Part shown: positions 38,469-46,600 of the stretch, in pieces
Position numbering within the stretch: position 1 is the first letter of the stretch
Layout: each line of letters begins with the position of its first letter
Source of the DNA: Daphnia carinata
Lineage: Eukaryota > Arthropoda > Branchiopoda > Diplostraca > Daphniidae
Assembly: GCF_022539665.2 (NCBI RefSeq)
Contig: NC_081333.1
Coordinates: forward strand, 3,286,001-3,350,000
Length of the DNA stretch: 64,000 nt
Reading direction: 5' to 3'
Position numbers and translations under genes: made by a program
The notes under the pieces: generated by a model
The model's database searches: none
The model's input: the letters and a program-made list of their open reading frames with translations, nothing else
Told to the model about the DNA's origin: nothing

Positions 38469-39314
38469 TTAAAGGAAAAAGATTTCGAACTCAAGCCTTT
38501 CGATTTCGACATGTTCTCCGATTATGCGACCAAGACCGTCCCTTACAGCAAGGCGAAATTCATTGCTATTCATCAGCACTTCGACATCCGCCCTGCTCCC
38601 CGATATTGGATATGAGATATCAATCACTTCCCCTCCACAGTATAAAATCCAGTTATCATTCGGTTGTTGTTCAGCTAAAATTATAACGATGTCGTCTTCA
38701 TCTGGTACGTGTCTTTGATCGCTGGTTTCAACTGATGGAGAGTGTTTGTTCCTGCGAATCGAACCGGTGATCGGATATCTGCACATGGGGCATTGCAATT
38801 TAATGCGACTCCATTTAACCAGACATTCGTAGCAAAACGTGTGACAGCAGTTTAGCCAGTATTTATCGACGAACGGTCCTAAGCAAATGGGACATTCCTC
38901 GAGACTTACCTGTACCTGTTTCCGACTGCTAGGCATCCTCTTCTTGTGGCACTTCCAACATAAAAAACCAGCGATGACCATAGCTATCCAATTGAAAAGG
39001 CTGGTACGGTCAATGATTTTGCCATCCTCAATTCCAATGAAAAACGCGGAGGCGATCTTGTATACGTAAAGGAGAATAAAGGCAAAGATGTCGGCCCTGT
39101 TGAACAGCTGGATGTCTGATCTAGCTACAGCGTTGAATGTAATACACCATGAATGATATGTCCAATCCAAAAGTCCTTGAATGATTCGATAGCATGAAAA
39201 TTCATTGATTATCAAATAAGCAAAAAGGATTTCCCAAATGACAGCCATCCATGATCTTGCAGTCATCAACGAGAGGATGAGGAAAGTAAACAAAGATTGA
39301 ATAACGTTTGCCAT
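38469..39314 (-). CDS. Membrane-anchored RING-finger protein, probable E3 ubiquitin ligase
   Basis: Single-exon gene, 281 aa from the ATG at 39314. A classical C3HC4 RING is visible: C141, C144, C156, H158, C161, C164, C175 and C178 (CPICL...NCCHTFCYECL...CPMCRYP). Before it lie several hydrophobic segments (about 6-35, 77-94 and 106-120), so the RING should face the cytosol from an internal membrane. The C-terminal 100 residues are acidic and polar. RING proteins of this layout transfer ubiquitin from E2 enzymes; the substrate is unknown. The frame is open upstream to an alternative ATG at 39500 (343 aa). I prefer 39314 because the hydrophobic N-terminus begins there. Lack of introns in an intron-rich region suggests a retrocopy or a lineage-specific gene. 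Confidence 0.8.
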   Translation of the reverse strand: MANVIQSLFTFLILSLMTARSWMAVIWEILFAYLIINEFSCYRIIQGLLDWTYHSWCITFNAVARSDIQLFNRADIFAFILLYVYKIASAFFIGIEDGKIIDRTSLFNWIAMVIAGFLCWKCHKKRMPSSRKQVQVSLEECPICLGPFVDKYWLNCCHTFCYECLVKWSRIKLQCPMCRYPITGSIRRNKHSPSVETSDQRHVPDEDDIVIILAEQQPNDNWILYCGGEVIDISYPISGSRADVEVLMNSNEFRLAVRDGLGRIIGEHVEIERLEFEIFFL

Positions 39315-39773
39315 TATTTGATAACTTATTTGAATTTTACAGCGAAAACTTGGTTGAACGGAGTTTGTTACTAAAGATGTGGTATCCGATAACGCATCAG
39401 AGCGTATACGCTTCGCACACAATGTACGTGTTTTGCATACGAAATTCAGACAAATATGTTTTTGCCATAACATTATCTGCAAACACGGTATTTTATCCAT
39501 CTATTTCAATAGCTTCCAATACAATAGAATAACCAGAAAAGGGTCGAATCGACACGAACGTCCGGGTATTGCAAGCGAAAAAAAATCTTGTTTGGAAAAA
39601 AGCGGATGGCTTGTTGTCTTGCCTGTTAGCTATACGTATCGCTCTAGAAGGGTCTCATTATTTTTTCGTAGAATTGATCGTCTATTGGCAGACCGAAAGG
39701 ATTGCAGGAAATATACCTGGGGGACCTGGATGTGATTCTTGCCCAAGGTTGCGCGGAAAAGAAAGCTTGATTG

Positions 39774-39783
39774 GGGAAAATCC
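39774..39783 (+). promoter_or_regulatory. kappaB-like site upstream of the cationic peptide gene
   Basis: GGGAAAATCC fits the insect NF-kappaB consensus GGGRDNNYYY and lies 60-70 bases before the TATA box at 39843. A single decamer is weak evidence by itself; its position before a predicted defence-type peptide is what makes it notable. Confidence 0.4.
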
Positions 39784-39842
39784 TTAAAGACTATCCACAG
39801 CTTGCTAACGATTTTCAGAAACGACCTTCACTTGTGCACTCG

Positions 39843-39850
39843 TATAAATA
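39843..39850 (+). promoter_or_regulatory. TATA box of the cationic peptide gene
   Basis: TATAAATA, 75 bases before the ATG at 39918, with an initiator-like TTCACAG about 30 bases downstream (putative +1 near 39875). Confidence 0.65.
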
Positions 39851-39917
39851 AAGCCACAAGTATCTGACATATTCACAGCAGTACAGTTCTTTCTTCGGCA
39901 TTTGACGGATTTAGAAA

Positions 39918-40421
39918 ATGACTGGTTCCTATTTGCTTGCCATTTTATTCTGCACTCAAGTTATCCTGACAGCTAACGGCCGTCCTCTTGGTGATGATGG
40001 TGAGTGGATGGATGACGTATCCCTTAATCCAGAGATTATGGGCTTAAACGATGAAGAGGATAACTCTCTATCGCGATCTGCTTCGGCCGTCGAAGACAAT
40101 GGCGAATGGGTGGACGATGTCACTGGTAACATGTTCATCATGGGCGAAGATCCTTTAAGCCAATCAACTGGATTGTCTGGTAAGTGTGAAGTATTTAAAT
40201 TTCTAGTCGAATGATTCTATAAAACGGCCTTTTTTCTGACAGACGATGTGAACGCTCGTAAGAAACGAGATGTTGGTAAGAAGATTCTGAAACTTTTGAA
40301 GAAGGCGTCCAAGAAATTGAAGAGAGACGTGATCGATACGTTGACCGTTGATCGTGAAAAGCAAAGCCCTACAAAGATTAAACTGGAGAAGACGTTGCTT
40401 CAGACTATGAAGAAACCATAG
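39918..40421 (+). CDS. Secreted precursor of a cationic amphipathic peptide (antimicrobial-like), family not recognised
   Basis: Two exons, 39918-40179 and 40243-40421, joined in phase 1, 146 aa. Residues 1-21 are a signal peptide. Residues 22-92 are acidic and contain two copies of a unit GEW(M/V)DDV...IMG at 28-42 and 62-76. A perfect furin-type site RKKR lies at 93-96. Residues 97-115 form a lysine-rich segment (about nine basic residues) whose Val, Ile, Leu and Ala fall at i/i+3/i+4 spacing, i.e. an amphipathic helix; it ends at another basic cluster, followed by a mixed 31-residue tail. An acidic propeptide neutralising a cationic helix is the usual layout of linear antimicrobial or venom-type peptide precursors, but no family match is claimed. 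A TATA box (39843) and a kappaB-like site (39774) precede it; ATTAAA lies at 40451. Confidence 0.8.
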
Positions 40422-40824
40422 AAATCAGCTGCAAAAAATTCAATGTTGTTATTAAAAAAAAAAAAAAGAGAGCATCCAAGTCTACTTTGCATTCGATTAT
40501 AATTGTTTCTGACGTTTCACTGATCGCAACCAATACAACGTCAACTGTGTCTTTTAATTCTTGTATAACGATTTATATATTTTCAAAGCTACGTTACTAG
40601 GTGTCCTATATTTCTCTTGATTAGTGTTGTCAGGTAAGTATGCGGAAAATGGTGATGACATGAAGGATGTTTCGCATTTAAGATGGCGCCACGTTCTCTT
40701 CGACCACCGGCGATTCAACCGTCTCATCGTCATGAGTGTACCTTTAAAATATCCCCAATTTGGGTATCATTATTCGCTGTGATATAACATCTTTATGATC
40801 TTAATGTAACGAAACGACGCTTAG

Positions 40825-41735
40825 TCACAAACCGTACCTTATTTGGTCTGATTCTTTTTCTGGAACATGGGCGATATTGACAGCAAACATCATCCATGTC
40901 AACTGTTGTTCGGTCAATGGACCACCGAGAAAAGCGTAAGCCGGTTCTCCCCAGCACGTAACAGTGTATGGTTCATTATCTTCCTGGCAAAACGTCTTTT
41001 CATTTACATACAAAAGTATTAACTCGGCAACTTTCGGTTTCTCCAAAATAGACGCGATCTTTGCCAACGACTTGAGGACTCTTTGGTAATTCTCCAGCAC
41101 AAACGGATCGTGCGTGTTGGATGACTTGCAAGCTCGATGGAAGTACGGATCGGCATGAATGAGAAATTTTAAATCCTCCGTAATTGGACTCATGTCCAAC
41201 GTTGGGAACATTTTGGTCCATTTTTTCTCCAGTGTTCTGATGACGTGAACATTGTCATTGGATAACAGAGCAGGGTATTTCGTTTTCCAAGGTTTTCCCG
41301 ATTTATCTCTGCCATCGAAACAATCCTTTAGACCACTAAAAGCCACTCTGTAGTTCTCGACGCAAAGTCTTGTTTGTTCGATTAGCGTCTCTTCTTTGGA
41401 TTGATACCTATTGTGACACACTTGTAGACTTTTAGATGAAGACGTATTTATGAATTTAAATGATTTACAGGTAGTGATTGCAGCGAGAACATTCTACATG
41501 CCAAAGGCTTCTGATGAAGTAGCTTCTCTTTCCTGGTTTTAAAATGGCTTCCATTCTTTCTTGCCTGAAACAAACACACCAATACTTGTTTATCATGAAA
41601 ATAGATGAAAAGATATATATACACAAGCTTTTACCATTCTCTGTAGGCAGGATTAGATGTCTTTATTATTTTGTTTTCTCCAGCACCAAGGACACTTTTA
41701 CTGAAAATATTTTGCAAAGTTTGCAAGAAACTCAT
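40825..41735 (-). CDS. Orphan protein of 266 aa, function unknown
   Basis: Exons 41635-41735, 41469-41564 and 40825-41428 join in phase 2 at both junctions. The second intron is only 40 nt, unusually short even for this genome, but without it the frame stops at once. The protein starts MSFLQTLQNIF and has no signal peptide. A Cys/His cluster (CSRCNHYLLQVCHN, about residues 57-70) might bind a metal; the rest is helical and charged, with four further cysteines (FHRACK, KTFCQE, VTCWGE among them). I recognise no family. It lies tail to tail with the cationic peptide gene (about 400 bp apart) and just downstream of the 210-aa secreted gene. Confidence 0.68.
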
Positions 41736-43627: not shown

Positions 43628-46600
43628 CTAGTTGAAGGTTTCTCTGGAACATCACAAACAAACCAACTATTAAAAAGATGTTCGAAATTAGGCAATTGTT
43701 GCTGCTACTTACCCGTGCTGATTAATGCTCGAAGTTCTTCCACGGACGGCAGCTTGTCTACTGCGTGTTAGAAAACCCTGGCCAGCCGTAGACGGGGCCG
43801 GCACTGGAGCCATCGCTTGGTTTTGGACGGCATGGCCTGAACCCAACCGTTGCTCCATGGCTTGACGTTGAAGTTGCATACCCTATTCAAAATCCGCGTG
43901 ATTAAAAGATGATATCAATGCCACTATGATGTTATTTCATACCAAATTGTAAAAGGCTGTTGTGACGAGTTGGTCCTCAGTATCGCGCATAGCTTTGTGT
44001 CTTTCGGTCTCTATTTCAAGCCGTTCAATCAATCGATCTTTCTCTCTCAGCTGGGCTTGCAAGGCGGCCATCTCCGGTGAAGCGGCCGGATTGTTTTTCG
44101 GATCCAAGGTCTTCAACACCATCTTGGCCTTTTCAATGTACCTTTTGTAACGTTCTTCCATTGCTTGCATTTCATTTTCTTTGCGGTTCAGCGTATCTTG
44201 TGCACCTTTTGTACGGTCCACTAACAAACACACGGAGATTGATTCACGTGTAACAACAAAGCGAACATCAATTATGTACTTACTTTGTTCAGTCAGCCTG
44301 TGTTCCATCTTTTCGACTTCGAGTTTCTTCTGTTGCACCTCCCTCTCCAGACTCTTGATTCGTATCTTCAAAGCCGCAACGTCCTTCGTATCAGATTGGC
44401 TTTCGGTACCGCTGCTGGAGACGGGCGATGCGACTCGACTGTTCTCCAATTGGATCTCTAGTTCCAGCACGCGCTTGGTCGATTTTCTAGACGATGGCCA
44501 TAGAAGCGAAACAACAAGAATACACACACAAAAAAAGAAATTTAGTACACCTGTTTTTAATAATTCGATTTTCAAAACAAAAAACGAATTCCTCTTTCTA
44601 AGTGCATTTTTTTTTTTTTTTTTTACCTGATTGTTTTGGTCGAAGGCGGATCGGGGACTGCGTCAAACCCTTTCTTTTTGTTCGCATTTCAAACCATCCC
44701 TCAATTTTTCTTTTTAAAAGCTAAAATCTACTTACTGAAACAAAGTTTATTGCGATTTGTGTAGCAAATGAACTACAAAAAAAGATAGGACGAGTATTTT
44801 TTTTTTTTCGTTGCAAAAAAAAAAAAATTAACACAAATTGCTGACGACTAAATCTACATATTTTTTGGGAGACACGATAGATATTGGAAGTTGGATTAGT
44901 AAATAGAGAGAAAAAAAAAAAGACCCCCCTATTTTTTGTTCCCTTAAGGTTTTTGTTTTAGTAAATATTTTCAATTCACCACCCGCCTTCGACCAGAACA
45001 ACATTTGTTTGTGCGTATTGGCAATACATGATTATAATAATATACTGGATAGCTAAAGTTAATTAGATCCTCTCTCTCTCTCGATTGACTCTCGAATCGG
45101 GTGCGCTTTCTGATCGCTACACAATTTGAGTACGTTTTCTAAACGTTTTTTTTTTTTTTTCACTTGCGAGAGGAGAAAGAAATGGACGATGGAGTAGAAA
45201 AAGATCTTGAATAAATACTGACATTAAAGCATATAAACTCTAAACAGATTGGAGTTCTCTTTTTTTTTGTTAGGACAAAATTGGGGTGGGAAGATCTTGT
45301 GAGAAAGGCCGATTTTCACGTCTCTATTGTTTGCGACGAGATTGAGAAATTGGCCATGGTGAGAACTTGTACGATATCGATAGGACCCGAATATCACAGA
45401 GAAAGCAAGGGATTCTTTCTTCCTACTTCTGTACTCGCATCTACCACACAGAGCAACATTGGAGTTCTAAAATTATTTTTGTTTTTATACGAGCACAACC
45501 CTGTTACCTGCTTTCGTTCTCAACCTTCATTTAAAAGTCTCCATTTTTTTCTTACTAGCACACAATTTTCTAGAGTAAATGCTTAAAAATAGAAAAACGA
45601 ATAAAAATTAAAGAGGAATGTCTACTATGATGGCACGTAAGGGGACCGACTTTTTAGCATCGTCGTTAATCGAAAAATCTCTCAGGGCTACATAGTTAGC
45701 TGCTAATCGACTTTGAGCGCCACGAGTTTCTATCGGGGGGGTGGTAAGACACACGCCATGAGCAAACAGATAATGTATATAGAAAAATCAATAGCGTTCG
45801 TAAATATTTAGGTCGTGAGAAAAAATTATTTTCCTCTAGTTTCAAGGGCCGCAAAGGGAAAACATAGCGTTGGCAGCGGCTTTGAACATTTTGCGCTTTT
45901 TCAACGACTTTCCGAAACTCTTCCTCGAACTCGTGTCGTCGGAATTGCGATGGGCAGAAGAGCGCGGAGTCAGCAAAAGCGATTGGGATCTATCAAATGA
46001 ACGATCGGAGCTGACGATCGTCTCACTGATGATTGAAAAAGAGGAGACCGACTCGCAATCGAACGAGGCTCTCCCATCGTGGAACGAGACGTCGATCTCG
46101 ATGGAATCGTCGGGCGGGCTACGCAACAACCCCGCCCCACTACCGCCAACGTCCTTCTTGTAAGGTAAGGCATTAAAATCGATCATAATTCCATCATCGA
46201 AATGGCTACTGTTGGGCGAATAGCGGGGCGATGAGGTGGACTCTTCGTAATGAATCGAATCACCGCCTCGATAGCCCGAGTCCGTCTCATCGCGTGGCGA
46301 CGAGTCTCTGGTGATGACGACGGCCTCCACCGGTGGCGGTGGCGGTTGATGGGACTGCGCTTGATGATAGCCATTCACTTCCATTTTGGATAAGGCTGGG
46401 TCACTTTCTCTTCGATGTGGTAGGGTGGCGAGACGGAGGAGACTGCTGCGGTCGCCTAGGCCGCCGCTCAACGGTAGCGACGTTTCTAATTGCCGGGTCT
46501 CGCTTTCAGAACTGCCCCACTTTCTATCCTGGGAACTCGTGGCCGCTGCAATACCGAAACCTAGGGCTCTGTCGTAACCGTAACTGACTGAACGGGAAAA

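What the first reader, a model, noticed from the sequence alone, without database searches (positions are those of the whole stretch)
39774..40421. Undescribed cationic peptide precursor with acidic propeptide, furin site and kappaB-like upstream site
Seen: signal peptide, two copies of a GEW-DDV-IMG acidic unit, RKKR at residues 93-96, then a 19-residue Lys-rich amphipathic helix, TATA box and a GGGAAAATCC site. Known: linear antimicrobial and venom-type peptides are often released from acidic propeptides at basic sites, and insect immune peptide genes are switched on through kappaB sites. Inference: an inducible antimicrobial peptide of a family without a name. To my knowledge classical antimicrobial peptides are scarce in Daphnia, which raises the interest.
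Basis: partly seen in the sequence, partly recalled or inferred. Interest (0 to 1): 0.85.

Follow-up and report, generated by a model that had tools for sequence, protein, structure and literature searches.

The report
Water-flea cationic peptide precursor family
A small water-flea gene encodes a secreted-looking precursor that seems built to release a short, strongly charged helical peptide from an acidic partner; it may be an antimicrobial peptide in a group where few are known, but no activity or expression data were seen.

Summary
A two-exon gene (39918-40179, 63-nt intron, 40243-40421) encodes a 146-residue precursor: signal peptide, two acidic GEW-x-DD-V...MG units (pro region -17), RKKR at 93-96, and a 19-residue segment (+8) with all nine Lys/Arg on one helix face. 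It is conserved and single copy here. Unnamed orthologues exist in Daphnia magna (92%), D. pulicaria (63%) and D. pulex (62%), plus 22 similar proteins without organism name. The basic site and Lys-rich segment are present in all 5 sequences whose second exon is visible, one of them only 32-43% alike; in 21 of 25 relatives that exon is out of view. Two points change the picture: the second acidic unit (27/28 identical to D. pulicaria) is better conserved than the cationic segment (14/19), while linker (3/23) and tail (9/31) drift; and 'inducible' rests on one kappaB-like word whose conservation could not be tested. Best reading (0.5): a host-defence-type peptide masked by a conserved anionic prodomain, working like frog-skin or cathelicidin precursors without detected homology to them. 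Processing, expression and activity are not shown. Interest 0.55.

The parts
39918..40179 (+). Exon 1 (coding part): signal peptide, both acidic units, first base of codon 88
   Evidence: homologues
40180..40242 (+). Phase-1 intron of 63 nt, GTAAGT...CAG; 9 of 22 unnamed relatives read GLSGK here, as the window does if the intron is read through
40243..40421 (+). Exon 2: spacer, RKKR, cationic segment, C-terminal tail, stop
39918..39980 (+). Signal peptide, residues 1-21 (cleavage after ANG inferred by the -3,-1 rule, recalled)
   Evidence: hydrophobic N-terminus in relatives
39993..40043 (+). Acidic unit 1, residues 26-42 (DDGEWMDDVSLNPEIMG)
40095..40178 (+). Acidic unit 2 with its C-terminal extension, residues 60-87, the most conserved part of the family
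40257..40268 (+). RKKR, residues 93-96, furin-type basic site
40269..40325 (+). Cationic amphipathic segment, residues 97-115, ending in a second basic site KLKR
40326..40418 (+). C-terminal tail, residues 116-146, poorly conserved between the magna and pulex groups
39843..39850 (+). TATA box (TATAAATA), 75 nt before the ATG
39774..39783 (+). kappaB-like word GGGAAAATCC, 69 nt before the TATA box; conservation untested
40451..40456 (+). ATTAAA, possible polyadenylation signal

Best explanation
A precursor of a linear cationic host-defence peptide. It enters the secretory pathway by its signal peptide; two acidic units (pro region -17) keep the Lys-rich segment (+8) neutral and harmless; a furin-type convertase cuts after RKKR; a second cut at KLKR and removal of the two basic residues give a 17- to 19-residue amphipathic helix (in D. 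pulex and D. pulicaria the sequence GKR would give a C-terminal amide) that acts on microbial membranes. Shown by computation: gene structure, single copy in this genome, conservation pattern, charge and amphipathicity. Inferred: secretion, cleavage, amidation, membrane action, immune control.
For: Basic site plus Lys-rich segment in 5 of 5 sequences with a visible second exon (window, P0001, P0003, P0004, P0020). The cationic segment is held (14/19 to D. pulicaria) while linker (3/23) and tail (9/31) drift. All nine basic residues of the 19-mer are on one face in the window, D. pulicaria and D. pulex. Alphafold model of the D. magna orthologue, whose 19-mer is identical: helix over residues 90-127, mean pLDDT 91 at 101-110 and 85 at 111-120. 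Stretch from unit 1 through unit 2 acidic, -13 to -19, in the 24 of 25 relatives with two units by a loose pattern; the 25th, P0016 with one unit, -7. The genome holds convertase P-domains (7 matches), copper-monooxygenase domains (8 matches, 7 over the cut-off) and Rel-homology domains (3 matches); matches are exon pieces, not gene counts.
Against: Acidic unit 2 is better conserved than the supposed effector (27/28 against 14/19). Only 7 of 19 residues of the segment are hydrophobic, rather low for a membrane-active helix (recalled). In P0020 the moment at 100 degrees is no better than shuffles (5968 of 20000 reach it); a hydrophobic strip appears only at 80-90 degrees. The second site and the amidation signal differ between species. 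The second exon is out of view in 21 of 25 relatives, and three near-alike ones (P0021-P0023) end at GLNS right after unit 2, which may be a stop in the intron or a true end without any cationic part. No expression or activity data. Single copy, where many antimicrobial peptides are multicopy (recalled).
Confidence: 0.5

Rival explanations
1. The acidic units are the working part: secreted G-[EQ]-W-x-D-D-[VI]-[ST]-x-N-x3-M-G modules that bind a partner (calcium, cuticle, a receptor or another protein), with the basic part as an anchor or a piece that is discarded.
For: Seven positions are invariant over 16 copies that I picked (nine of unit 2, seven of unit 1). Against D. magna and D. pulicaria unit 2 is 100% and 96% identical where the linker is 71% and 13%. 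Alphafold puts short strands at 63-65 and 72-74. P0021-P0023 may lack the cationic part altogether.
Against: The cationic segment with its basic site is present in each of the 5 sequences where the second exon can be seen. The strands have low confidence (blocks near 60) and shrink to two residues or fewer in the second model.
Confidence: 0.22
2. A regulatory peptide (hormone or neuropeptide) precursor, cut by prohormone convertases and amidated.
For: Convertase-type sites and, in D. pulex and D. pulicaria, GKR after the peptide; single copy.
Against: No conserved C-terminal motif: KLKR here and in D. magna, KGKR in D. pulex and D. pulicaria, FGRN in P0020. Nine of 19 residues basic is unlike the arthropod hormones I can recall.
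Confidence: 0.12
3. A structural or storage protein of cuticle, carapace or egg in which acidic and basic blocks serve cross-linking or mineral binding.
For: Signal peptide, acidity, variable linker. Two cuticle-type genes on C6 score weakly with the relative P0025 (E 0.006 and 0.07).
Against: Two units only and invariant Trp, Gly, Met and Asn point to a defined interaction rather than a repeat polymer. The C6 matches align over signal peptide and unit 1 but read DDSTWQEPVSG, without the DD and MG of the motif.
Confidence: 0.08
4. An intracellular basic protein whose N-terminus only looks like a signal peptide.
For: RKKR and KKASKKLKR would also pass as nuclear targeting signals (by eye).
Against: The N-terminus stays hydrophobic although its letters change (2/21 identical in P0020; best 10-residue stretch 2.4 or more in 23 of 25 relatives, the exceptions being P0015, whose start is cut, and P0016, where the script measured the wrong place).
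Confidence: 0.03

Closest known systems
Frog-skin antimicrobial peptide precursors (dermaseptin/temporin type; recalled, not fetched)
   Same: Signal peptide, acidic propiece better conserved than the mature peptide, basic cleavage site, short cationic helix, sometimes amidated.
   Different: No sequence relation found (0 Pfam, 0 PDB); two GEW-DD units with invariant Trp; furin-type RKKR; crustacean.
Cathelicidins (recalled)
   Same: A conserved prodomain paired with a more variable cationic effector.
   Different: No cystatin-like cathelin domain: no Pfam match; the acidic units are about 20 residues each and free of Cys.
Crustacean antimicrobial peptides: ALF and crustins
   Same: Secreted defence molecules of crustaceans.
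   Different: Those are Cys-rich (recalled; crustin Cys also in passages of PMC5437397). The same passages say D. pulex lacks both. The ALF model found nothing in this genome, but that search had no positive control.
HLP candidate antimicrobial peptides of fungi and arthropods, reported also from Daphnia (PMC13357843: abstract start, passages)
   Same: Small candidates in Daphnia, predicted only.
   Different: Two helical segments with three conserved disulphides; the segment here has no Cys.

Membership tests
Linear alpha-helical cationic antimicrobial peptides (functional kind) | Net positive, amphipathic helical segment of 12-40 residues | tested here: met
   +8, moment 0.81; one-faced wheel; helix in the model of the D. 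magna orthologue. Weaker in P0020
Linear alpha-helical cationic antimicrobial peptides (functional kind) | Secreted, released from a precursor by proteolysis | tested here: inconclusive
   Signal peptide and basic site present in the 5 sequences with a visible second exon; cleavage itself not seen
Linear alpha-helical cationic antimicrobial peptides (functional kind) | Kills or inhibits microbes | not testable with these tools
   Needs a peptide assay
Linear alpha-helical cationic antimicrobial peptides (functional kind) | Hydrophobic content near or above 40% (figure recalled) | tested here: inconclusive
   7 of 19 here, 6 of 19 in D. pulicaria and D. pulex, 5 of 17 in P0020
Immune-inducible genes of arthropods (Rel/NF-kappaB targets) | Functional kappaB site near the promoter, induced on challenge | tested here: inconclusive
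   One GGGAAAATCC; it does not fit GGGRNWYYCC; no DNA of relatives could be fetched; no expression data
Cathelicidins | Cathelin (cystatin-like) prodomain | tested here: not met
   0 Pfam families at E up to 10
ALF / crustin | Cys-rich LPS-binding or WAP domain | tested here: not met
   0 Pfam families; the only Cys of the precursor is in the signal peptide
Amidated neuropeptides | Gly-basic signal behind a conserved C-terminal motif | tested here: not met
   GKR in D. pulex and D. pulicaria, KLKR in the window and D. magna, FGRN in P0020

The most novel reading that the evidence does not exclude
The gene encodes an effector and its own guard in one chain: a conserved, duplicated Trp-Asp-Asp module that binds and silences a faster-drifting cationic killer peptide and stays with it after cleavage until it meets a microbe; a crustacean counterpart of cathelicidins evolved independently, and a main linear antimicrobial peptide of water fleas, in which a genome survey recovered none.
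Probability: 0.2. Interest if true: 0.75.

Novelty: new member of a known kind. Interest (0 to 1): 0.55.

Why it matters
Daphnia is a leading model of host-parasite evolution, yet the D. pulex immune gene survey could not recover antimicrobial peptides (PMC2685406, passages). A conserved single-copy precursor with a short peptide that can be made and tested would let one ask directly whether water fleas have such effectors. The conserved acidic unit is in itself a sequence module for which I found no name.

Tried and rejected
Paralogues in the genome: protein search (only this gene); motif pattern (4 hits, two are this gene, L011 is a 601-residue acidic frame that resembles TAF1 by eye, L008 a 54-residue frame without the M-G of the motif); distant relative P0025 (two hits in this gene and two weak ones on C6, L014 and L015, both cuticle-type genes by eye). 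Rejected as relatives.

Relatives with DNA: viral contigs twice (12 and 190 stretches matched patterns, none confirmed) and genome contigs once (67 stretches, none confirmed).

Rows dropped before counting the family: P0026 (E 0.49, a 44-residue fragment) and P0027 (E 3.5); P0028 (E 9.5e-5, one unit) is mentioned apart. The 25 counted proteins hold near-duplicates (for example P0001 and P0002, P0021 and P0022).

Literature: identifiers of the three named orthologues: 0 papers. Motif and peptide letters: 0 papers. Only word searches inside papers were made: PMC10375369 and PMC6295042 do not hold the word antimicrobial; PMC9926121, PMC7825712 and PMC2981931 gave nothing on this gene. The other papers listed were not opened.

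A resemblance of GEW-DD-T to the C-terminal hairpin of protein G came to mind (recalled); the profile of the unit found 0 PDB chains, so it is only a lead. The cationic segment found one designed helical protein at E 2.6, not meaningful. Fold libraries were not searched because both models are of low confidence (mean pLDDT 65.1 and 69.4). The bacterial promoter scan does not apply here and was not used.

Full report
WHAT IS THERE. The window lies in a 108-Mb genome in 106 contigs. The gene is on the + strand: ATG at 39918, exon 1 to 40179, a 63-nt phase-1 intron with GTAAGT and CAG ends, exon 2 from 40243 to the stop at 40419-40421. The product has 146 residues. Residues 1-21 look like a signal peptide, residues 22-92 carry a net charge of -17, RKKR stands at 93-96, residues 97-115 carry +8 and the tail +2. 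A TATA box starts at 39843 and GGGAAAATCC at 39774. The upstream neighbour is a RING-finger gene on the other strand (frame 38469-39500; Pfam zf-RING_2), so the putative promoter lies between two divergent genes.

IS IT MORE THAN CHANCE. The two acidic units agree at 10 of 15 positions, reached by 0 of 2000 shuffles. The helical moment of the 19-mer, 0.81, is reached by 2 of 20000 shuffles of its own letters (0 in a second run); for the D. pulicaria 19-mer it is 0.68 and 8 of 20000. On a helical wheel the nine basic residues occupy one face and the other face has none. More important, the gene is conserved. A protein search found annotated proteins of D. magna (P0001, 92%), D. pulicaria (P0003, 63%) and D. 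pulex (P0004, 62%), called uncharacterized, and thirteen further proteins without organism name. A profile search raised this to 25 proteins with E below 1e-12, out of 27 listed; a third search added one with a single unit, P0028, at 9.5e-5. The three members with an organism name are Daphnia; for the other 22 the host cannot be told from what I have.

WHICH PARTS ARE KEPT. Window against D. magna: unit 1 19/21, linker 12/17, unit 2 28/28, spacer with RKKR 7/9, cationic segment 19/19, tail 28/31. Against D. pulicaria: 15/21, 3/23, 27/28, 5/10, 14/19, 9/31. Against D. pulex: 15/21, 2/25, 27/28, 4/10, 14/19, 9/31. The spacer figures suffer from where the aligner put a one-residue gap; the basic site itself is RKKR in the window, D. 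magna and D. pulicaria and RRKR in D. pulex. So two blocks are under constraint, the second acidic unit most and the cationic segment next. Among P0001-P0025 a pattern for the units finds two copies in 23; P0009 and P0016 show one. Over 16 copies that I picked, nine of unit 2 and seven of unit 1, seven positions never vary: G4, W6, D8, D9, N13, M17, G18; the degenerate first units of P0009, P0010 and P0016 were not among them.

THE SECOND EXON IN RELATIVES. The 22 unnamed relatives mostly stop soon after the point where the Daphnia genes splice; 9 of 22 read GLSGK there, exactly what the window reads if its intron is not removed, so their second exon is out of view. One, P0020, has an intron that stays in frame. 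It is 32% identical to D. magna with the intron letters and 43% without; BLAST gives 58% to the window protein over 42% of it. Beyond the intron one reads NRRKR, then RSLRKKLAKKLTKKF-GR-NGPFGFGF: the same design, basic site then Lys-rich segment, with 7 of 19 letters kept. I count 5 of 5 visible second exons with the design and 21 of 25 relatives untested. Against this reading, the P0020 segment is not amphipathic at 100 degrees (5968 of 20000 shuffles are as good); its Leu-Leu-Leu-Phe ladder peaks at 80-90 degrees (0.66-0.82). And P0021-P0023 end in GLNS directly after unit 2: either an early stop in the intron or proteins without a cationic part.

STRUCTURE. Alphafold on 22 relatives with the D. 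magna orthologue first gives mean pLDDT 65.1, a helix at 90-127 with mean pLDDT 91 in the block 101-110, a helix at 131-143, and short strands at 63-65 and 72-74 with low confidence. With P0020 first: mean 69.4 and one helix 87-134, which also covers intron-derived letters and so says little. The acidic units may form a small hairpin, but this is not established. The unit has no PDB match by profile and the protein none in Pfam or PDB.

HOW IT MAY WORK. The simplest account is a masked cationic peptide: the acidic region balances the charge in the secretory pathway, a convertase cuts after RKKR, a second cut at KLKR frees the helix, and the helix acts on microbial membranes. In D. pulex and D. 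pulicaria the segment ends in GKR, the usual amidation signal (recalled), and in P0020 in GR; here and in D. magna it is LKR without Gly. Candidate enzyme domains are encoded: convertase P-domains (7 matches) and copper monooxygenase domains (8 matches, 7 over the cut-off; this family also holds other enzymes, recalled). All of the processing is inference.

THE KAPPAB SITE. The exact word occurs once in the window and 293 times in the genome, against 81 for the word read backwards, a rough control. By the genome density a copy within 150 bases has a chance of 0.0004. Densities in the window, which include this very site, give 0.002 for the exact word, 0.028 for GGG followed by four or five A/T and CC, 0.041 for a generous union of definitions, and 0.16 for any GGG-N4/5-CC. 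It does not match GGGRNWYYCC, and with one mismatch allowed the window holds fewer sites than shuffles, 4 against 7.3. Rel-homology domains are present in the genome. Without upstream DNA of other species or expression data this is a hint only.

WHAT IS KNOWN. Passages of the D. [quoted passage not shown] Passages of a crustacean comparison say D. pulex lacks ALFs and crustins (PMC5437397). A 2026 paper proposes disulphide-bridged HLP peptides as potential antimicrobials, found also in Daphnia (PMC13357843, abstract start, passages). No held paper has the gene identifiers or the motif letters; most subscription papers are not in the library and supplements were not searched. The design, a conserved acidic prodomain with a more variable cationic helix, is that of frog-skin precursors and cathelicidins as I recall them; no homology to either was found.

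VERDICT. A genuine, conserved precursor family without a name in the libraries searched, most likely of host-defence type (0.5). The main surprise is the strict conservation of the acidic unit, which leaves a real chance (0.22) that it is the working part.

Noticed in passing
L005:2557-2566 (G000:C1:11659400-11659409): The same word GGGAAAATCC, here within GGGAAAATCCC, lies about 930 bases upstream of the first matched Rel-homology exon of the minus-strand Rel gene; perhaps self-regulation.
   Followed up: partly
G000, whole genome: GGGAAAATCC occurs 293 times against 81 for the word read backwards; whether it is truly over-represented needs a better control.
   Followed up: no
P0021-P0024: A subgroup of the family has a His-Asp-rich stretch (such as HSDGDGHDHH) between the acidic units, possibly metal-binding.
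   Followed up: no
P0028: A protein with one acidic unit followed by a Met/Gln/Pro-rich stretch: the unit may occur in another setting, or the reading is cut by an intron.
   Followed up: no
window 40825-41493 (-): Open frame of 222 residues just downstream, convergent with this gene, without Pfam match.
   Followed up: partly
window 43937-44662 (-): Frame matching the HOOK coiled-coil region (Pfam HOOK, E 2.5e-30).
   Followed up: no
window 38469-39500 (-): RING-finger gene divergent from this one; its first Met codons are at 39500, 39473 and 39314, so both genes may share regulatory DNA.
   Followed up: partly
L014 and L015 (G000:C6:3647375 and 3669479): Two near-alike cuticle-type genes, judged by eye from their frames, that score weakly with the relative P0025.
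   Followed up: partly
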